Source: Phycisphaerales bacterium (lineage in GTDB: Bacteria > Planctomycetota > Phycisphaerae > Phycisphaerales > SM1A02). Taken from it: DNA of 64,000 nt. The DNA lies in assembly GCA_009691705.1 (NCBI GenBank), contig SIAR01000009.1, positions 1 through 64,000 on the forward strand, written 5' to 3'. Both the position numbers and the translations under genes were made by a program. Positions 55,817 to 64,000 of this stretch are shown here, piece by piece; positions within the stretch are counted from its first letter, which is position 1; each line of letters starts with the position of its first letter. The notes below the pieces were generated by a model, which was given only the letters and a program-made list of their open reading frames with translations, made no database searches and was not told the DNA's origin.

Positions 55817-56815
55817 ATGCGTTTTCAACTTCATTGCTTGATGGGCGTAGTGCTCAGCGCAGTGCTCGCAACGCAACTGGGATGTGTTCACAAACCGATC
55901 AAGATTCGAACGCTCGATGGTGCGACAGGTGCATCAGTCGAAGGCGCCGATGTTCGCCAGCACAGCGCGCGATTATTCGCATTCTTTCCATCAACTGCAC
56001 CAGCACCGAAAACCAGCGCCGCCGGCGAAATCGATCTCGTGCTCAACGCCCGCGGCACAAATCTCGCGATTCTTCGACCGGGGTACGTGCCGACGCAAGT
56101 GGCGATCGTGCCTGAGCCGAGTGGTCGCGCGTCCGCGCCGCCAAGCGAATGTCCGACGCTTGATGTCTCGCCGAGCAATTGTGTCGAGTTCGAGAGACTC
56201 GCCAAGGGAACGACCATTGAGGTGCACTTGACGCCGACCGTTCCAAGAACCGTGCGGGTCTGTGTGCGAAGTGAACTTGCGCTGCCACTCGCCGACGCCG
56301 AGGTAATCGCGCACGCTGGACTGTTTCTTCCCAAAGATGGAGTCGAGGCGCAGTGGGGGTTGCCTGCTCTGCAGCGCACTTCGACAAATGCCCACGGGTG
56401 CGCCGAGGTCACTGTGCACGGCGGACTGCGCAACTATCTATATGTGCGCGCCGCTGGGCGGGTCAGTGAGCGGCTCTCGCTAGACGCATTCGCTGCCCAC
56501 GCGCAGATTGACGTGACGTTGCGCGTGGCAGAGTTCAAGGCCGCAGTGGTGCGGGTGATCGATGACGCCACGGGCTATCCCATCAAGAATGCCAGGGTCG
56601 AACTCGGCAAAGAATTAGATGGCATCGCGCGCGATCCCAATGGTTGGTCTGTTCAGACGGATACCAATGGATGCACCCCCGCAGTGCTGCTTCCCAACGC
56701 CAACAGTCTTTCGGTGAGTGCATCATGCGAGCGGTTTCGGTCGAGCCGAAAGATGATCGCGTGGCAGTTCGTTCGCGCTGGCAATCCAATCGAGATATTG
56801 CTCAAGCGCAAGTGA
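55817..56815 (+). CDS. putative lipoprotein with carboxypeptidase-regulatory-like repeats
   Basis: A 332-residue protein with an N-terminal lipoprotein signal ending in LGC at residue 23. The rest is beta-rich. Blocks such as IKIRTLDGATGASVEGADV and VVRVIDDATGYPIKNARVEL look like carboxypeptidase-regulatory-like (Ig-type) domains that occur in many surface proteins. Function unknown. Confidence 0.68.
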   Translation: MRFQLHCLMGVVLSAVLATQLGCVHKPIKIRTLDGATGASVEGADVRQHSARLFAFFPSTAPAPKTSAAGEIDLVLNARGTNLAILRPGYVPTQVAIVPEPSGRASAPPSECPTLDVSPSNCVEFERLAKGTTIEVHLTPTVPRTVRVCVRSELALPLADAEVIAHAGLFLPKDGVEAQWGLPALQRTSTNAHGCAEVTVHGGLRNYLYVRAAGRVSERLSLDAFAAHAQIDVTLRVAEFKAAVVRVIDDATGYPIKNARVELGKELDGIARDPNGWSVQTDTNGCTPAVLLPNANSLSVSASCERFRSSRKMIAWQFVRAGNPIEILLKRK

Positions 56816-56848
56816 GCAAAACGCAAGGCATGCGTCTAATCTCATGGC

Positions 56849-57253
56849 ATGACTCTTACTGCCAACAAGACCCTCGGTTCTGAAGCGCTGACAGAAGGCA
56901 TGCACGTCATTGTCGTGCCGAGCTTTGTCGAAACACACTCCGACATCGAGCGTGGACGTTTCATCTTCGCCTACCACGTTCGCATGACAAATGAGGGAAC
57001 GCAGTCCGCCCAATTGACTAGTCGCTCGTGGCAAATCGTTGACGCAGACGGAGCGCGTCACGATGTCGATGGACCAGGCGTTGTCGGTCAGCATCCCAAC
57101 CTCGCGCCAGGCGAGTCGTTCGAGTATTCAAGCTATTGCCCGCTGCCAACAGCATGGGGAACGATGGAAGGTCACTTCGTATTCGTGCGCCCCGACGAGC
57201 GCACATTCAACGCGCGTGTTGCTCGCTTTTATTTTGCGGCTCCAACTGCGTGA
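56849..57253 (+). CDS. apaG: ApaG (DUF525) protein
   Basis: A 134-residue single-domain protein of the ApaG fold. HVIVVPSFVETHSDIERGRF and FAYHVRMTNEGTQSAQLTSR are typical, as are the RSWQIVDADG strand and the VVGQHPNLAPGESFEYSS segment. ApaG has been linked to divalent cation resistance but its biochemical role is unclear. It precedes the peptide export operon by 40 bases, same strand; a functional link is not evident. Confidence 0.9.
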   Translation: MTLTANKTLGSEALTEGMHVIVVPSFVETHSDIERGRFIFAYHVRMTNEGTQSAQLTSRSWQIVDADGARHDVDGPGVVGQHPNLAPGESFEYSSYCPLPTAWGTMEGHFVFVRPDERTFNARVARFYFAAPTA

Positions 57254-57293
57254 CCGCATCCGCATTCGACGCTTCGCGGTAGTCTTTCAATCC

Positions 57294-58163
57294 ATGACCC
57301 CCAGTGGTGAAGGTGAGCCAAAACTGTTTCGCAAGATAGCGCTCGAGTCGATGGGTGGTCGCAATCGCCTAAACACGCTGAGCCCGCTGATTTCGCCGCA
57401 AATGTGGATCGTCACAGCGTCGCTCGCGTTTCTTCTCACGGCGGTCGTGACGTGGGGATTCGTCGGGCGTATTCCCGTCACCGTGCTAGGCAGTGGAATC
57501 TTTTTGCGCGGCGAACGTCTTGACACGGTCAATTCGCCGATGGAAGGACTGATTCACGAAATGCGCAAGAGCGATGGCGATCATGTGCTGGCCGGCGAAT
57601 GCATCGCCATTGTTTCGGCGAGTGCTTCGGCCGCCGACGCGTCGACTCAGGTGCTCGCGTCTGCCGATGGAACCATCGTCTCAGTCGAAACCGAAGATTG
57701 GGACTTTGTCACAAAGGGGCAGATCATCGCGCTCATCGCCACCGGCAGCGACGCTCCAACCTGCATCGCATTCGTGCCACTCGCTGAAGGTAAGCGCATT
57801 GAGATTGGGATGCCAGTGCGCGCCGCATTCAGCAACGTCAATTCCTATGGTGGTGGGCAGGCAATTGGACAAGTTTCAGCGATCGATGGATTCGTCACCG
57901 ATCCAGATCAGATGTTTGGACGGGTGCCGAGTGCGGGGGTGATCGAGTCGATCCGTGAACGCTTCGGAACAGTCACCGCATTCGTGGTTGCAATTGATCG
58001 CGACCCCAACGGACACGGTGGTCTGCGCTGGACCACATCATCGGATCGATCGACTGCAGTCACCAATGGCACTCTCTGCGACATCGAAGTCACCGTCGGC
58101 CAAGTTCGACCCATCGCACTGCTCTTGCCTGGCCTGGGAGAGATCGCTGGTTCATCGCCATGA
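57294..58163 (+). CDS. membrane-fusion (HlyD-like) protein of NHLP-type peptide export system
   Basis: A 289-residue protein with a single N-terminal membrane helix (MWIVTASLAFLLTAVVTW, about residues 40-57). A barrel-sandwich/biotinyl-lipoyl-like domain follows (EGLIHEMRKSDGDHVLAGE; ASADGTIVSVETEDWDFVTK), the layout of HlyD/NHLP secretion proteins. It would join the inner-membrane transporter to the outer layers of the envelope. ATG at 57294 excludes the frame running through apaG. It overlaps the next gene by 4 bases. Confidence 0.86.
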   Translation: MTPSGEGEPKLFRKIALESMGGRNRLNTLSPLISPQMWIVTASLAFLLTAVVTWGFVGRIPVTVLGSGIFLRGERLDTVNSPMEGLIHEMRKSDGDHVLAGECIAIVSASASAADASTQVLASADGTIVSVETEDWDFVTKGQIIALIATGSDAPTCIAFVPLAEGKRIEIGMPVRAAFSNVNSYGGGQAIGQVSAIDGFVTDPDQMFGRVPSAGVIESIRERFGTVTAFVVAIDRDPNGHGGLRWTTSSDRSTAVTNGTLCDIEVTVGQVRPIALLLPGLGEIAGSSP

Positions 58164-60382
58164 GCGGCGAAGAGTCGCCCGAGGTCGAAGCAGACGCGCC
58201 CGATGAATTGTTTGAGTTTCCGCCGGGAAAGGCGCGTTGTGTTCGAGTTCCAACAACGATGCAGGTTGTCGCCGCGGAGTGCGGGGCGGCGAGTTTGGCC
58301 AGTGTCTTGGCGTACTACCACGCCTATCGGCCACTCGAAGAAGTGCGCGAAGCCGTGGGTGTCGACCGCGATGGTGCGAATGCGTTGCGCATCGCGCGGG
58401 CGGCGCGCCACTTTGGGCTAGATGCTGAAGGCATCAAGTGTGAGATCGAAGACTTCGCTGATGTCACACTTCCGGCAATTCTGTTTTGGGGTCTCAATCA
58501 TTTCGTGGTACTCGAGGGGTGGAACAAGCACGGCTACCGCATCATGGATCCGGCAACGGGACGACGCCTTGCCAGCGCCGAGGAGTTCAACCACGAGTTT
58601 TCTGGCGTCGTCTTGCAGATGCATCCCAGCGAAACTTTCGATGCCTCTGGAAGCGCCCCATCATCGTTGACCCTCGTCATGGCATGGTTGCGCGGTGGGG
58701 GCACGGCAATCTGGCTGACGGTCTTCGTTGGAATGTTGCTGGCGGTTCCGATGGTTGCGGTCCCAGGGATTGCCGCGGGATATGTCGACAACGTGCTCGC
58801 CACGGCTCGCACAGATTGGATGAAGTGGATTCTGTTTGGAGCCATCGCCGCACTCATTCTCGAGAGTGGACTCATGCTCTTGCAGCAACTAATTCTTGCC
58901 CGCCTCGAGCAGCAGCTGTCACTCGAACGCACTTCTGATTTCTTGCAGCAGCTCTTTCGACTGCCGACGACTTTTTTTGCGCAGCGCTATCCCGGAGACA
59001 TTGTCGAACGGGTGCAGAGCAATGATGCCGTCGCCGCGCTGCTCGCTAGCAAATTCGCCCCAGCAATCGTGCAGGTTCTAACCCTGCTCGCATTTCTCGC
59101 TGCGATCGCCTGGATCAATATTCCCATGGGAATCATCGCGCTCGCGGCGGTGCTTGTCACACTGGCGCTGCTCTTTGGAGTTGCGCGCGCCCGCGTCGAT
59201 CAGGCGCAGTCGTTGCAACAACAAGAGGGCATGAAGCAGGGTGCGATCATCGCGGGGTTGCTCACACTTGAATCGCTCAAAGCTGGCGGACGCGAGGCCG
59301 ATTTCTTTGGTCGCGCGATGGGATTCGTGGCCCGGGTCGGCGCCGCCCGGCAACGGGCGAACATTCTCTCGAATGCGATCAGCATTATTCCCTCGTGGTT
59401 TCAGGCCGTCGTCGTGTCGGTGCTAGTGCTCTCGTTCGGGGGATGGCAAGTCATGCAAGGAACGATGACAATCGGAACTCTGCTTGGACTTCAGATTCTG
59501 TTACTCGGATTCATGACCCCAGTTACGCAACTCGCCGAGTTGATTCGCGAGATTCAGACGATTCGCGCTGATCTTGGGCGACTCGATGACGTGATGTGCC
59601 ACGAGGTTGATCAACTCGCGATCGATCCTGAGGTCGATGATTCGCAGGCGATCGAGTACGCCGACGGCGATCTTGAACTGCGAAACATTACGTTTGGATA
59701 TGGTCATGGGCAGCGGCCACTCTTGGCAGGTTTCTCGCTGAAGGTCGTCGCGGGCGGTCGTGTCGCGCTCGTCGGCGGAACAGGATCTGGCAAGTCGACT
59801 GTTGCACGACTAGCGGCCGGACTACTTGAGCCGTGGGAGGGTGAGGTGCTGATCGACGGTCAGTTACTTCGCACCATCCCCCGACATGTGCGGGCCGCGA
59901 GCATCGCCGCTGTTTCGCAGCGCCCCGCGTTCTTTGAGGGCACCGTGCGCGAGAATCTTTCGTTGTGGAATCCAGATATTCCCGATGCGTGGATGGTCGA
60001 AGCGCTCGAAGATGCGCAACTCGCAGAACTAATCAGCGCGCGTGGTGGGCTCGACCAGCCCGTCGCCGAAGGAGGAGGTAATTTTTCTGGGGGCGAAGCG
60101 CAGCGGCTCGACATTGCGCGCGCGTTGTCGCGCCGCCCGGCACTGCTCATCCTGGATGAAGCGACGAGTGCGCTAGATCCGGTGGCCGAACTCGCGCTCG
60201 ATGGGGCGCTTCGTCGCCGCGGAGTGACTTGCCTCGTGATAGCCCATCGACTCAGCACGATTCGTGATTCGGATGAGATCATCGTCATGGACGATGGAGA
60301 GGTCGTCGAGCGTGGCACCCACGATCAACTGCTCGCGCTCGATGGCATCTACTGCGATCTCATCGCGGGAGAAGAGTCATGA
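58160..60382 (+). CDS. C39 peptidase/ABC transporter of NHLP-type peptide export system
   Basis: A 740-residue bacteriocin-processing exporter. The N-terminal C39 domain has the catalytic Cys41 (AAECGAASLA), His114 (NHFVVLEGW) and Asp130 (IMDPATG). Six membrane helices (about 185-460) are followed by an ATPase with Walker A GGTGSGKST near residue 540, an NFSGGEAQR signature and a LLILDEATSALDP Walker B. C39 domains cut double-glycine leaders as the peptide is exported. It starts within the stop of the membrane-fusion gene and overlaps the next gene likewise. Confidence 0.93.
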   Translation: MSGEESPEVEADAPDELFEFPPGKARCVRVPTTMQVVAAECGAASLASVLAYYHAYRPLEEVREAVGVDRDGANALRIARAARHFGLDAEGIKCEIEDFADVTLPAILFWGLNHFVVLEGWNKHGYRIMDPATGRRLASAEEFNHEFSGVVLQMHPSETFDASGSAPSSLTLVMAWLRGGGTAIWLTVFVGMLLAVPMVAVPGIAAGYVDNVLATARTDWMKWILFGAIAALILESGLMLLQQLILARLEQQLSLERTSDFLQQLFRLPTTFFAQRYPGDIVERVQSNDAVAALLASKFAPAIVQVLTLLAFLAAIAWINIPMGIIALAAVLVTLALLFGVARARVDQAQSLQQQEGMKQGAIIAGLLTLESLKAGGREADFFGRAMGFVARVGAARQRANILSNAISIIPSWFQAVVVSVLVLSFGGWQVMQGTMTIGTLLGLQILLLGFMTPVTQLAELIREIQTIRADLGRLDDVMCHEVDQLAIDPEVDDSQAIEYADGDLELRNITFGYGHGQRPLLAGFSLKVVAGGRVALVGGTGSGKSTVARLAAGLLEPWEGEVLIDGQLLRTIPRHVRAASIAAVSQRPAFFEGTVRENLSLWNPDIPDAWMVEALEDAQLAELISARGGLDQPVAEGGGNFSGGEAQRLDIARALSRRPALLILDEATSALDPVAELALDGALRRRGVTCLVIAHRLSTIRDSDEIIVMDDGEVVERGTHDQLLALDGIYCDLIAGEES

Positions 60383-63063
60383 GTGCGCCCGCCGAATCAA
60401 TCGTCGCCCTTGCGCTCGATCTCGGTGGCGAATCTTGCTATCTCGACCGGCGCAGCCAACTTCAGCTCACCCAGTGTGACGAACTGTTTGTTGTAGTGCG
60501 GGGATCGGTCGTGCTCTTCGCGCGACACCGGGCTGGCGGACGGCGCCACCGCATTGGAGTGATTCAAGCTGGGGCCGCGTTTGCCGGTCCTGCGGCTGGC
60601 ATCGAGGCGGTTGCGGTCAGCGAAGCTGAGTTTGTGCGCATTCGACGCGAGCCACTGGCGCGCGTCGTGGCTCAATCACCCACCGAGTATGCGCTTAGCG
60701 CAGGAATCGCCGCGACGCTCGCGGCTTGCGGCGCGTCGGTACCTCCACACGCAGATATCGCGACAGCGTGCGCGCACTGCGCCACGACACTTGCGCGGCG
60801 CGGCAACGCCACTATTGAAACATCATTCGCGCGGCACTTGCGGCGGCTCGTCAGTGTTGCAACTTCACGTCTCGCGTTTCCAGAAGAGTTGCAGTCGATG
60901 CTTGTTGATCGCCCACCAGGCGGCCGTGCGCACTTGCCCGACACCCGACTCCCTCCCATCGTTCGCGCGTGCATGCAGATCGCATACGACATTGGCACTG
61001 ATCCATCGGCCATTCCAACGAGAATCCCGCGTGACAACACCCGCCGACCCGAACAGATCTACGCGCACGTTGCTGGACTCGGCATTCGTCCAGTCTTTCT
61101 CGACCCAGGTTGGTGGCACAGTGGCGTGGGATCGCTGCTCGCCTTTCGCGCTCAAGATCATGCCCCCGTCGCGATCATCCCGACGCCTGCGGGGATGGTG
61201 GCTTACGTGCACTCGGGCGGAGCGACGATCGGTCCCGTGCCGGTCGATGCAGCCTTCGCGGCGCAATTGACAGCAACGGCGTCGCAGTTTCACCCCACTA
61301 TTGCGGCGCATCACGCGTCGATTTCGCAGTTTCTACGATTTGTAGTTCGCGGTTCTGAGCGAGACTTCTTGTACGCGTTTCTAGTTTCAGGGATTGCGAG
61401 CTTTGTGAATCTTGCGATTCCGCTGGCGACGGGGCTGCTCGTGACCCGTGTCTTGCCGAGCAATAATGGATGGAGCCTCTTCTATCTCGGGTGCGTGTTG
61501 CTCGGCACAACGCTGAGCGCCGCTGCGTGTGGATTTGTCGTTTCGAATCTGCTGTTGCGGGCTGAGTCGCGCATTGCCAGTCGGGCGCTTGGTGGAGTGC
61601 TCGATCGCTGCTTGCGTATGCCAACGCAAACATTTCGCTCATTCACCAGCGGCGATCTCGCCGATCGCATTTTCTCGGTGGGCGACATTCAAACGGTTAT
61701 CTCTGGTGCCGCAATCTCAGCGATCATGGCGGGAGTGTTTTCGCTGATGTATGTCGCGGTGATGCTCTACGTAAGCACGAACGCGGCTCTCATCGGGTGC
61801 GCATTACTCGTGGTTGCCGTGCTTTGGAGTGTCATTCTCAGCGCACTGCGCTCGCGACTCTCGACCACCGTTCTCGAAGGTCAGGGACGCCTCTCAACGA
61901 TGGCGTTGCAGTTCATCGGCGGGATCGACACGATTCGCAGTGCGGCGAGTGAGCACTACGCCACACTTCGCTGGATGGGTCCATTTCGTGAAACTAGGTT
62001 GGCGGCCATGCGAATTCGCACCCTCGAGCGACTCTTCGACGCATTCGCGACGGGCTTTCCTATGGTCTGCCTGATGATTTTCTGGATCGTCTTTCTGCCC
62101 GTTGGCGTAATGGGCGGAGTTGGGTTGTATGGGACAGCAGCCACAGACCGCATCGCGCAGTACCTCATGTTCAACGCGGCATTTGTCGCGGCGCTCTATT
62201 CGGTACTCGAGTTCGGCGAACATCTAGGCGACCTCTCGGCATTTCGTTCGACCTTGCGGCGCATCGAGCCGATCTTGAGCGCACCAACCGAACGCACTTC
62301 AGACCGCGAACAGCCAGGAGTGCTCGATGGAAAAATCGACATCGACGACGTGCACTTTTCTTATCCAGGGAGTGCCAACGAAGTGCTTCGCGGAGTGTCG
62401 ATGCACATCGCTGCTGGCGAGAGCGTCGCGATTGTGGGCGGTTCAGGCAGCGGAAAGTCGACTCTCATCCAGTTGATTCTCGGGATGCGCCGTCCCACTT
62501 CTGGCGAAGTCCTCTTCGATGGCAAGGCGCTTGGGCGACTCGATCTCGTCTCGGTTCGCCGACAAATTGGCGCAGTCGTTCAGAACACCCGCGTGGTGCC
62601 TGGATCGATCCTCGACAACATTGTTGGAAGCACCATGTTCACTCCCGTGGATGCAGAGGCGGCGATCGAGGCAGCGGGATTTGGTAAAGAAGTTGGCAAG
62701 ATGCCCATGGGTGTGCACACCTATGTCACCGACCAGACGCTCTCAGGTGGACAGGTGCAGAAACTCATGATCGCTCGCGCACTCGTGACGCGACCGCGCA
62801 TTCTGATCTTCGATGAAGCCACAAGCGCCCTCGATGAAATCTCGCAATCGCAGGTCGTGCGCAGTCTCGAGGCGTTGCAGACCACGCGCGTCGTGGTCGC
62901 CCATCGGCTCAGCACAATTCGTCGCGCCGACCGGATCTACGTGGTGGAACTTGGTCGCGTCGTGCAGTCTGGCAACTTTGCCGAATTGATGGCGGTCAAA
63001 GGACCGTTTCAAGAGATGGCGCACCGACAGCTCATCGACTTCCCAGACGAGACCGTCATCTGA
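60379..63063 (+). CDS. second ABC permease/ATPase of NHLP-type peptide export system
   Basis: An 894-residue protein. The first 95 residues look like a degenerate cyclic-nucleotide-binding-like barrel (QCDELFVVVRGSVVLFAR). A middle soluble part follows, then an ABC membrane domain from about residue 330 and an ATPase with GGSGSGKST (about 689-697), an LSGGQVQK signature and ILIFDEATSALDE. There is no C39 domain, as in the partner subunit of NHLP systems. It probably forms a heterodimer with the previous protein. Last gene of the operon. Confidence 0.9.
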   Translation: MSAPAESIVALALDLGGESCYLDRRSQLQLTQCDELFVVVRGSVVLFARHRAGGRRHRIGVIQAGAAFAGPAAGIEAVAVSEAEFVRIRREPLARVVAQSPTEYALSAGIAATLAACGASVPPHADIATACAHCATTLARRGNATIETSFARHLRRLVSVATSRLAFPEELQSMLVDRPPGGRAHLPDTRLPPIVRACMQIAYDIGTDPSAIPTRIPRDNTRRPEQIYAHVAGLGIRPVFLDPGWWHSGVGSLLAFRAQDHAPVAIIPTPAGMVAYVHSGGATIGPVPVDAAFAAQLTATASQFHPTIAAHHASISQFLRFVVRGSERDFLYAFLVSGIASFVNLAIPLATGLLVTRVLPSNNGWSLFYLGCVLLGTTLSAAACGFVVSNLLLRAESRIASRALGGVLDRCLRMPTQTFRSFTSGDLADRIFSVGDIQTVISGAAISAIMAGVFSLMYVAVMLYVSTNAALIGCALLVVAVLWSVILSALRSRLSTTVLEGQGRLSTMALQFIGGIDTIRSAASEHYATLRWMGPFRETRLAAMRIRTLERLFDAFATGFPMVCLMIFWIVFLPVGVMGGVGLYGTAATDRIAQYLMFNAAFVAALYSVLEFGEHLGDLSAFRSTLRRIEPILSAPTERTSDREQPGVLDGKIDIDDVHFSYPGSANEVLRGVSMHIAAGESVAIVGGSGSGKSTLIQLILGMRRPTSGEVLFDGKALGRLDLVSVRRQIGAVVQNTRVVPGSILDNIVGSTMFTPVDAEAAIEAAGFGKEVGKMPMGVHTYVTDQTLSGGQVQKLMIARALVTRPRILIFDEATSALDEISQSQVVRSLEALQTTRVVVAHRLSTIRRADRIYVVELGRVVQSGNFAELMAVKGPFQEMAHRQLIDFPDETVI

Positions 63064-63089
63064 GAAGCTGAACAAACCAAAGCACTTTC

Positions 63090-63144
63090 AAAAACGAAAA
63101 AGGAGTCAGCGACCGTTCAGGAGCAAAGAACGATCGCTGACTCC
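63090..63144 (-). terminator. rho-independent terminator of the leader-peptide gene
   Basis: Left arm 63102-63118 and right arm 63128-63144 form a 17-bp stem with one mismatch and a 9-base loop. On the minus strand the stem is followed by TTTTTCGTTTTT, so it ends transcription from the right. It lies between the converging transporter operon and the precursor gene, and its stem may also stop the operon's transcripts. Confidence 0.9.
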
Positions 63145-63194
63145 AAGGCATTCATTCACCTTGGTCATTGATGGTCGAAACGAGACACGCTGAA

Positions 63195-63344
63195 TTAGCG
63201 CTTCGGAGTCCGGGCGCGACGGGCGGCAGTTGAGTTGCGCGAAACGCGGGCGTTGGCGCCTCCGCTTGCCTTCTCGAGTTCTGCGTCTGTCAGTTTCACG
63301 GGCTTGGGTTTGCTCTTCGACGATTTCTCTGGCTTTGATGACAT
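63195..63344 (-). CDS. double-glycine leader peptide precursor (bacteriocin-like), 49 residues
   Basis: The leader (residues 1-29) is Lys/Ser-rich and ends LTDAELEKASGG, the classic double-glycine form (L-x-x-x-E-L-x-x-x-x-GG) cut by C39 peptidases. The core (30-49) is a 20-residue peptide with six Arg, one Lys, no acidic residue and no Cys, ending RRARTPKR. A good ribosome site (AGAGGAAA) precedes ATG 63344. It is convergent with the export operon, 131 bases beyond its stop, so it is its likely substrate. No modification enzyme is encoded nearby. Confidence 0.8.
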   Translation of the reverse strand: MSSKPEKSSKSKPKPVKLTDAELEKASGGANARVSRNSTAARRARTPKR

Positions 63345-63455
63345 GAAGATTTCCTCTAAAAAGCGAGTGATGCGGCGGTCTACACAACCGAGCCTCAATC
63401 GCATGAGCAACTTACGGTACAGTTGCGAAATGGCAAACGTGAGTAGTGATTTTTT

Positions 63456-64000
63456 GTGAAAAATTCGAAGATCGGTCGCGACTTCACCCTCGCAGTGGTC
63501 GGCGCAACCGGAGCGGTGGGCTCGGAATTCATCCAGTTACTGGTCGCGTGCGGAGTTTCTGCGAGTCGCGTGCGTCTCTTTGCGAGCGAGCGGTCGGCTG
63601 GCCGAACCATCTCGGTCGCAGACCGGGCGATTCCCATTGAGTCGCTGAAGCCGGGCTGTTTCGCGGGCGTTGACATCGCCTTTTTTTCGGCGGGAAAGGC
63701 AATATCGAAGCAGTGGGCCTCTCAAGCGGTCGCTTCTGGCGCATGGGTGGTCGACAATTCAAGCGCATTTCGGATGGACCCGAGTGTTGCGCTGGTGATC
63801 CCAGAAGTGAATGCGGACGCCGTTGACGGGCAGGGCGCGCCAGCGATTGTAGCGGTCCCAAATTGCTCGACAATCGTCGCACTCGTCGCGGCGACTCCGC
63901 TGCACCGTGTTGCGAAAGTTCGGCGCATGACCGTCGCGACCTATCAGGCAGCGAGTGGGGCAGGCGCCGCAGCGATGCGTGAACTTGAAGCGCAAGCCCA
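63456..64000 (+). CDS. asd: aspartate-semialdehyde dehydrogenase, cut by window end
   Basis: The frame runs from GTG at 63456 to the window edge (181 residues visible). It has the NADP loop VVGATGAVGSE, VVDNSSAFRMD, the catalytic Cys in VPNCSTI and QAASGAG. It reduces aspartyl phosphate to the semialdehyde for Lys, Met, Thr and diaminopimelate synthesis. It is divergent from the leader-peptide gene, 111 bases apart. Confidence 0.93.
   Translation, partial: MKNSKIGRDFTLAVVGATGAVGSEFIQLLVACGVSASRVRLFASERSAGRTISVADRAIPIESLKPGCFAGVDIAFFSAGKAISKQWASQAVASGAWVVDNSSAFRMDPSVALVIPEVNADAVDGQGAPAIVAVPNCSTIVALVAATPLHRVAKVRRMTVATYQAASGAGAAAMRELEAQA

What the first reader, a model, noticed from the sequence alone, without database searches (positions are those of the whole stretch)
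57294..63344. Peptide-export operon with a convergent double-glycine precursor encoding a cationic, Cys-free 20-residue core
Seen: HlyD-like protein, C39-ABC transporter (C41, H114, D130), a second ABC subunit of the NHLP type, all with 4-base overlaps, and on the other strand a 49-codon gene with the leader ending LTDAELEKASGG and a core of charge about +7. Known: C39 domains cut double-glycine leaders and NHLP-type two-ABC systems export peptides. Inference: this is a self-contained secreted-peptide system with an unmodified Arg-rich core, possibly antimicrobial, signalling or nucleic-acid-binding. No immunity gene or maturation enzyme is seen. This is the best candidate for an undescribed system here.
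Basis: partly seen in the sequence, partly recalled or inferred. Interest (0 to 1): 0.88.

Follow-up and report, generated by a model that had tools for sequence, protein, structure and literature searches.

The report
Exported polycationic peptide with dedicated exporter
A planctomycete carries a conserved gene for a tiny, strongly positively charged peptide beside the machine that should cut and export it, and relatives in three further genera have the same pairing, so this looks like a lasting part of their biology rather than a one-off toxin.

Summary
In detail: HlyD-like, C39-ABC and second ABC genes overlap by 4 bases, and a convergent 49-codon gene encodes a leader ending LTDAELEKASGG plus a 20-residue, +7, Cys-free core. 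The gene is real: 18 of 19 same-genus genomes match it, with purifying selection in frame and a conserved terminator hairpin. The pairing recurs in three more genera (7 of 7, 1 of 1 and 10 of 12 exporter-bearing genomes; two fragments unexamined). Cores differ between genera but share a composition: 27 distinct cores, 678 residues, no D, E, C, W or Y, net +6 to +9. YcaO occurs in 1 of 19 and LanC-like in 0 of 19 same-genus genomes. The exporter resembles NHLP-type systems but misses all three NCBI cut-offs; the precursor matches neither NHLP nor Nif11. New: the adaptor lacks the TolC-docking hairpin in this genus (9 of 9 aligned, BesA-like) and also the lipoyl domain in another (3 of 3), while two genera keep the hairpin. 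Best reading: a conserved, probably unmodified exported polycation that binds anionic polymers, perhaps reaching only the periplasm here. Antimicrobial or signalling roles remain possible. New variant of a known kind.

The parts
56849..57253 (+). apaG, upstream neighbour; housekeeping, not part of the system
   Evidence: NCBIfam PRK05461 134.4 bits over cut-off 106; Pfam DUF525
57294..58163 (+). HlyD-like adaptor, 289 aa: one TM helix, lipoyl halves joined by a short linker, barrel; no alpha-hairpin
   Evidence: best NCBIfam match NHLM_micro_HlyD 132.2 bits, below cut-off 156.2; alignment A6; AlphaFold model, mean pLDDT 77.2, pTM 0.60; the eight best Foldseek PDB matches are BesA chains, TM-scores 0.45-0.51
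58160..60382 (+). C39 peptidase-ABC exporter subunit; C39 domain residues 30-158, C41/H114/D130
   Evidence: NHLM_micro_ABC1 813.1 bits, below cut-off 853.3; Pfam Peptidase_C39 7.4e-32; motifs
60379..63063 (+). second ABC subunit, no Pfam C39 match; N-terminal cyclic-nucleotide-binding-like beta-roll (about residues 18-88)
   Evidence: NHLM_micro_ABC2 632.9 bits, below cut-off 709.4; Pfam cNMP_binding E 0.0014, 19.0 bits, below cut-off 27.5; AlphaFold of residues 1-340, pLDDT 80.3; Foldseek matches to CRP/PKA/PKG domains
63102..63144 (-). terminator-like hairpin between the convergent genes; the A-rich run 63090-63101 is U-rich in the minus-strand (precursor) transcript
   Evidence: z-score -4.30, 0 of 200 shuffles as stable; 6 of 16 pairs with double-sided changes among 12 of the 18 precursor loci
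63195..63344 (-). double-glycine precursor, 49 aa plus stop
   Evidence: translation; 18 of 19 same-genus genomes; pN/pS
63258..63344 (-). leader, residues 1-29, ending LTDAELEKASGG
   Evidence: alignment A2
63198..63257 (-). predicted mature core, 20 residues, net +7
   Evidence: alignment A2; composition
63350..63357 (-). Shine-Dalgarno-like AGAGGAAA upstream of the precursor ATG
   Evidence: sequence printed
63413..63436 (-). conserved element TTGCCAT-N10-TACCGTA in the divergent precursor/asd intergenic region; promoter-like by position only
   Evidence: exact pattern in 14 of 19 same-genus genomes; 15 sites, 14 at the precursor and one elsewhere (G017 C5)
63456..64000 (+). asd-like gene (aspartate-semialdehyde dehydrogenase), divergent neighbour, runs out of the window; housekeeping
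   Evidence: ORF at L001 1759-2793; named by eye from its likeness to the G087 gene, which matches Semialdhyde_dh and Semialdhyde_dhC

Best explanation
The small gene is the dedicated substrate of the neighbouring exporter. Its leader is recognised and cut after GG by the C39 domain, and the paired ABC subunits carry a short, disordered, probably unmodified polycation across the inner membrane. It is a conserved, probably vertically inherited product rather than an arms-race toxin, and most likely works electrostatically by binding anionic polymers of the envelope, matrix or surroundings (LPS, acidic polysaccharide, extracellular DNA). In this genus the adaptor has no hairpin of the kind that docks TolC, so delivery may end in the periplasm unless a BesA-like docking is used. 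Shown: gene reality, pairing, shared composition without acidic residues, missing hairpin. Inferred: cleavage, export, disorder, final location, target.
For: Pairing: precursor in 18 of 19 same-genus genomes, next to the second ABC gene on the same contig in 17. Three further genera whose ABC2 aligns over its full length have a convergent GG precursor: g18 7 of 7 and g2 1 of 1, g43 10 of 12, the other two being ABC2 fragments not examined. Selection: core pN/pS 0.23 in 14 genomes (bootstrap 0.12-0.34), variable core columns 9/7/18 of 20 by codon position in 18 genomes, core identity above ABC2 identity in 83 of 91 pairs. Composition: 27 distinct cores, 678 residues, 0 D/E/C/W/Y, 1 F, 2 H, net +6 to +9, FILMVW 7.8%. 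C39 residues intact. YcaO 1 of 19, LANC_like 0 of 19. Hairpin absent in 9 of 9 adaptors of this genus aligned (9 of 19 genomes given); hairpin and lipoyl absent in 3 of 3 g18 (3 of 7 given); hairpin present in 2 of 2 g43 (2 of 12 given) and 1 of 1 g2. BesA heads the PDB list. An OEP gene lies between ABC2 and precursor in 6 of the 10 g43 loci, 3 of them Pfam-tested.
Against: No experiment on cleavage, export or function; the polyanion-binding role rests on composition alone. OEP/TolC-family matches occur in 19 of 19 same-genus genomes, and the BesA pump is reported functional without a hairpin (PMC3807786, passages), so secretion to the outside is not excluded. The pN/pS interval of the core includes the values of leader (0.31) and ABC2 (0.33), so only identity sets the core apart; pN/pS is uncorrected for saturation. 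One antisense frame of the core also has a low pN/pS (0.25), though with stops in 5 of 18 sequences. G018 has GA, not GG. Cationic candidate precursors near such exporters are not wholly new: PMC3140520 (passage) says HetP and DUF37 candidates in cyanobacteria are opposite in charge to the mostly negative NHLP/N11P ones. Absence of enzymes is judged on draft genomes, 70-97% complete in this genus.
Confidence: 0.5

Rival explanations
1. A bacteriocin-like antimicrobial: the exported cation kills competitors, perhaps non-lytically through an intracellular target.
For: A GG precursor with a C39 exporter is the classical class II bacteriocin/microcin plan (recalled); net +6 to +9; the nearest named exporter models are called bacteriocin export.
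Against: Core conserved within the genus rather than diversifying; only 7.8% FILMVW residues, far below membrane-active peptides (recalled); no room for an immunity gene between apaG, exporter, precursor and asd; one match to the four-genus precursor profile in G000 at E <= 0.5, and only weak second matches (E >= 0.04) in G009, G014 and G018.
Confidence: 0.2
2. A cell-cell signal: the processed peptide is a pheromone sensed by a receptor encoded elsewhere.
For: ComA, a pheromone-exporting C39-ABC (recalled), is among the PDB relatives of the C39-ABC. A near-constant core within the genus that changes between genera would fit a genus-wide signal. In g43 an ECF sigma factor lies near the precursor in 2 of 2 loci Pfam-tested, followed by a Ser/Thr kinase in the one where that gene was tested.
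Against: No receptor or regulator between apaG and asd in this window; cores are low-complexity and nearly free of aromatic residues; across genera composition rather than sequence is what is kept.
Confidence: 0.2
3. A modified peptide (RiPP) whose tailoring enzyme is encoded elsewhere and was not tested.
For: Core rich in Ser/Thr/Arg; the NHLP-type exporters were first described with modified peptides (PMC2887384, passages); G016 does carry a YcaO.
Against: YcaO in 1 of 19 and LANC_like in 0 of 19 genomes of the genus, against 18 of 19 with the precursor (the LANC_like search rang in 1 of 14 control genomes, the YcaO search in 5); no enzyme in the neighbourhood; no Cys.
Confidence: 0.08
4. 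A cytoplasmic nucleic-acid-binding protein; the GG is accidental.
For: The whole precursor is basic and rich in Lys/Arg/Ser.
Against: GG-leader motif beside the same exporter in four genera, and in g18 with different genes around it.
Confidence: 0.03

Closest known systems
NHLP/Nif11 (N11P) peptide systems with the TIGR03794/03796/03797 exporter (PMC2887384, passages)
   Same: Three-gene exporter of HlyD, C39-ABC and ABC without peptidase; GG precursor nearby; these are the best NCBIfam matches
   Different: All three proteins score below the curated cut-offs; the leader is 29 residues, basic, and matches no NHLP or Nif11 model; precursor and core are positive, whereas NHLP/N11P precursors are reported mostly negative (PMC3140520, passage); no tailoring enzyme found
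HetP and DUF37 candidate precursors at cyanobacterial bacteriocin clusters (PMC3140520, passages)
   Same: Short candidate precursors near C39 exporters, said to be opposite in charge to NHLP/N11P
   Different: Not compared by sequence here; the window precursor matches no Pfam family at E <= 1
EbfG1-4/PteB of Synechococcus elongatus (PMC4997328, abstract start and passages)
   Same: Small GG proteins exported with the help of a C39 peptidase transporter and needed for biofilm formation, not for killing
   Different: Four co-transcribed ebfG genes there, one precursor here; sequence relation not tested
BesA, hairpin-less periplasmic adaptor of Borrelia burgdorferi (PMC3807786, passages; PDB 4kks/4kkt/4kku)
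   Same: Lipoyl halves joined by a short loop, no alpha-hairpin; top structural matches of the HlyD model
   Different: BesA serves an RND drug pump with its own outer-membrane partner BesC; here the partner is an ABC peptide exporter with no OEP gene beside it; 12-14% identity
Class II bacteriocins and Gram-negative double-glycine microcins (recalled)
   Same: GG leader, C39-ABC exporter
   Different: No linked immunity gene, few hydrophobic residues, core conserved across the genus

Membership tests
NHLP bacteriocin export system (TIGR03794/03796/03797) | Each protein scores over its curated NCBIfam cut-off | tested here: not met
   132.2 of 156.2, 813.1 of 853.3, 632.9 of 709.4 bits
NHLP bacteriocin export system (TIGR03794/03796/03797) | Gene trio of HlyD-like, C39-ABC and ABC without peptidase | tested here: met
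NHLP or Nif11-derived precursor (TIGR03793/03798) | Leader homologous to nitrile hydratase alpha or Nif11 | tested here: not met
   No Pfam family at E <= 1; only NCBIfam match NF046113 at 14.7 bits, cut-off 40
C39 double-glycine substrate | Short leader with a Leu-containing motif ending in GG or GA, beside a C39-ABC | tested here: met
   alignment A2, GG in 17 of 18 and GA in G018; neighbours
C39 double-glycine substrate | Cleavage after GG by the cognate C39 domain | not testable with these tools
   needs an in vitro assay
Class II bacteriocin | Linked immunity gene | tested here: not met
   gaps between apaG, exporter, precursor and asd hold no further gene that I could recognise; an unlinked one is not excluded
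Class II bacteriocin | Antibacterial activity | not testable with these tools
   needs a killing assay
TOMM / lanthipeptide RiPP | YcaO or LanC-like enzyme in the genome | tested here: not met
   G000 has neither; YcaO 1 of 19, LANC_like 0 of 19 in the genus; other tailoring enzymes such as radical SAM not tested
Hairpin-less (BesA-type) adaptor | Lipoyl and barrel domains present, alpha-hairpin absent | tested here: met
   A6, model, Foldseek; resemblance of architecture, not shown common descent
Type I secretion / tripartite exporter | Adaptor able to dock an outer-membrane TolC | tested here: inconclusive
   hairpin absent, but OEP matches in 19 of 19 genomes and the BesA precedent

The most novel reading that the evidence does not exclude
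A family of exported, unmodified polycations, selected for composition rather than sequence, that coat the planctomycete's own periplasm, surface or aggregate matrix. In two genera the exporter has shed its outer-membrane docking parts and become a periplasm-directed polycation pump, gated by a cyclic-nucleotide-binding-like domain.
Probability: 0.22. Interest if true: 0.78.

Novelty: new variant of a known kind. Interest (0 to 1): 0.56.

Why it matters
Double-glycine peptides are usually read as bacteriocins or modified peptides (recalled). Here one exporter clade, in four genera, has one regular companion: a short polycation with no acidic residues in any of 27 distinct cores and, in the genus tested, almost no sign of two common tailoring enzyme families. 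That makes a non-toxic role for such peptides directly testable. The difference between sister genera in the adaptor (hairpin kept, hairpin gone, lipoyl domain gone as well) gives a natural series for asking whether an ABC peptide exporter can be retargeted to the periplasm. A 49-codon precursor may also be easy to miss in annotation.

Tried and rejected
Leads that went nowhere or were not followed. (1) Genus precursor profile against 392 genomes of the phylum: only G000 convincing; G278, G447 and G557 at E 0.002-0.006 not followed. (2) Genus precursor against 201 relatives: 18 same-genus genomes, plus 19 others at E 0.003-0.1 taken as chance without further look; one of these, G087, was opened later and does hold a precursor. 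(4) Four-genus profile in 181 family genomes: matches in 74 at E <= 0.5; I followed the precursor loci of g1, g2, g18 and g43 and fetched G080 and G101 stretches (only G080 was read); most other matches at E > 0.01 were not followed. The G614 precursor alone found 9 of 181, weak ones not followed. (5) Regulon for the promoter-like element: 15 sites, 14 of them at the precursor, so local. (6) Rfam on 56500-64000: nothing. (7) Methylobacterium plasmid H1: convergent GG ORFs with acidic and aromatic residues in the cores, not the same system. (8) Eight more family genera have an ABC2 match at E <= 1e-90 that starts only at residue 140 or later; I looked at two, g7 and g14, which have a longer operon with OEP and DUF7005, without reading their small ORFs. 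(9) PMC6461901 on freshwater planctomycetes was read in passages; I did not show that this genus belongs to any group named there.

Considered and rejected: chance ORF and wrong frame; overlap artefact (the precursor lies between the exporter and asd). In one search the pN/pS values given for the C39-like and TMD+NBD parts of ABC2 were sliced out of frame and are wrong; one search replaces them. The 13 cores showed no His; the fuller set has two.
Full report
What is there. HlyD-like 57294-58163, C39-ABC 58160-60382 and second ABC 60379-63063 overlap by 4 bases at both junctions; C41, H114 and D130 and the nucleotide-binding motifs are present. The small gene, 63195-63344 on the minus strand, has an AGAGGAAA Shine-Dalgarno-like sequence. 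A hairpin at 63102-63144 is more stable than all 200 shuffles (z -4.30) and is kept with double-sided changes at 6 of 16 pairs in 12 of the 18 precursor loci; the A-rich side makes it terminator-like for the small gene. So the small gene looks like a transcription unit of its own, convergent with the exporter and divergent from an asd-like gene.

Is the small gene real? Composition is no proof: 20-mers with net charge +7 or more make up 3.5% in spurious ORFs inside genes and 0.04% in 36 likely genes of this window. Conservation is. Of 19 genomes of the genus, 18 match the precursor. The miss, G010, is 70% complete, and its second ABC match stops at query residue 580 at the contig end. In 17 the precursor lies beside the second ABC gene on the same contig; in G003 the two are on different contigs. 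In the core, changes fall on third positions (9, 7 and 18 variable columns of 20 each). pN/pS is 0.22 in 18 genomes and 0.23 in the 14 also used for ABC2 (bootstrap 0.12-0.34), against 0.31 for the leader and 0.33 for ABC2 in those 14. The other two sense frames and two of three antisense frames give values above 2; the third gives 0.25 but has stops in 5 of 18 sequences. Mean identity is 0.81 for the core, 0.74 for the leader and 0.66 for ABC2, and the core exceeds ABC2 in 83 of 91 pairs. The difference in pN/pS is within error.

Beyond the genus. In 181 family genomes, 12 of 45 genera have an ABC2 match at E <= 1e-90. In four of them (this genus g1, and g2, g18, g43) the full-length matches start near the N-terminus, at 39% identity or more; in the other eight they start at residue 140 or later. 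The precursor goes with the four. g18: 7 of 7 genomes with the exporter have a convergent 46-codon gene, core AKSRSTSTSSVGRTGPRKSTRGR or a near variant (for six, for all seven). g2: G019 has a 78-codon one between ABC2 and an asd-like gene, as in the window; G087 has one beside asd on a contig that ends there. g43: 12 genomes match; 10 were examined and all 10 have it; the other two are ABC2 fragments. In six of the ten an OEP-type gene lies between ABC2 and precursor, confirmed by Pfam in three; in four the precursor follows ABC2 directly. In a sample of 397 genomes of the class, matches at E <= 1e-110 came from these four genera, from G061 of the same family and from one genome of another family, G189.

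Composition. Twenty-seven distinct cores from the four genera (14, 3, 2 and 8) hold 678 residues with no D, E, C, W or Y, one F and two H; net charge +6 to +9, length 20 to 43, FILMVW 7.8%. They are related within genera and not independent. Sequence is kept inside a genus, composition across genera.

The exporter and where it leads. The nearest named families are the NHLP exporter models, but the three proteins score 132.2, 813.1 and 632.9 bits against cut-offs of 156.2, 853.3 and 709.4. The precursor hits no Pfam family and no NHLP or Nif11 model. Published NHLP and N11P precursors are said to be mostly negative, and HetP and DUF37 candidates the opposite (PMC3140520, passages), so cationic candidates as such are not new. 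The adaptor is telling. Two g43 adaptors (of 12 genomes) and the g2 adaptor are 420 aa with some 130-140 residues of hairpin; nine of nine adaptors of this genus that I aligned (of 19 genomes) lack it; three of three from g18 (of seven) are 211 aa and lack hairpin and lipoyl domain. The AlphaFold model (mean pLDDT 77.2, pTM 0.60) shows a TM helix, lipoyl and barrel strands and no hairpin, and its eight best PDB matches are BesA chains, the adaptor described as lacking the hairpin that recruits TolC (PMC3807786, passages). The BesA pump is reported functional, and OEP matches occur in 19 of 19 genomes here, so periplasmic delivery is a hypothesis, not a result.

The second ABC subunit begins with a cyclic-nucleotide-binding-like beta-roll: below the Pfam cut-off (E 0.0014), supported by model and PDB comparison. 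The ligand is unknown. Whether residues 193-305 are a degenerate C39 domain was not tested.

Function. YcaO is found in 1 of 19 and LANC_like in 0 of 19 genomes of the genus, so two common tailoring routes do not explain the peptide; other enzymes were not searched, and the genomes are drafts. Few hydrophobic residues, no linked immunity gene, conservation in the genus and a single match in G000 argue against a classical bacteriocin. EbfG proteins of Synechococcus show that GG proteins exported with a C39 transporter can serve biofilm formation (PMC4997328, passages). My reading is an exported polycation that binds anionic polymers; signalling and antimicrobial roles remain live.

Where it lives. 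Of the 17 named contigs of this genus, three titles name Lake Baikal; other habitats and the window's own source were not established.

Literature. Searches on double-glycine with planctomycetes and C39 (12 of 60 listed), NHLP with planctomycetes (11 of 11), Phycisphaerae with bacteriocin or NHLP (10 of 40) and arginine- or lysine-rich double-glycine peptides (10 of 154) listed no paper on such a system, judged by title and start of abstract. Five papers were read in passages (PMC6461901, PMC2887384, PMC3140520, PMC4997328, PMC3807786), none in full. Most subscription journals are not held.

Verdict. Observation confirmed, interpretation partly supported, new variant of a known kind.

Noticed in passing
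window 60430-60642: Second ABC subunit carries an N-terminal cyclic-nucleotide-binding-like beta-roll, so export could be gated by a small ligand.
   Followed up: partly
window 63413-63436: TTGCCAT-N10-TAYCGTA element in the divergent precursor/asd intergenic region, exact in 14 of 19 same-genus genomes.
   Followed up: partly
L156 848-1423 (+) and 474-656 (+): In G189, from another family of the order, beside and convergent to its ABC2, a 191-aa ORF holds several GG sites in repeated segments, like a multi-core precursor, with a second GG-type ORF before it.
   Followed up: no
L133 1961-3035 (-): g56 genome G080 has a row of four GG-type ORFs with acidic leaders, one of them long and NHLP-like by eye.
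   Followed up: no
L137 1193-2859 (+), L136 2757-3329 (+): In g43 an ECF sigma factor (Pfam, both loci) and, in L137, a Ser/Thr kinase lie near the precursor and point away from it; possible regulators.
   Followed up: partly
L057 8199-11143, L058 8647-11612 (+): g7 and g14 have a different export operon ending in OEP and DUF7005.
   Followed up: no
G016 C26 11904-12923 (L144): The only YcaO found in the genus (327.3 bits).
   Followed up: no
L054 6419-6709 and 7175-7516 (-): Methylobacterium plasmid pMRAD01 has GG-type ORFs convergent to its NHLP exporter, with acidic and aromatic residues in the cores.
   Followed up: partly
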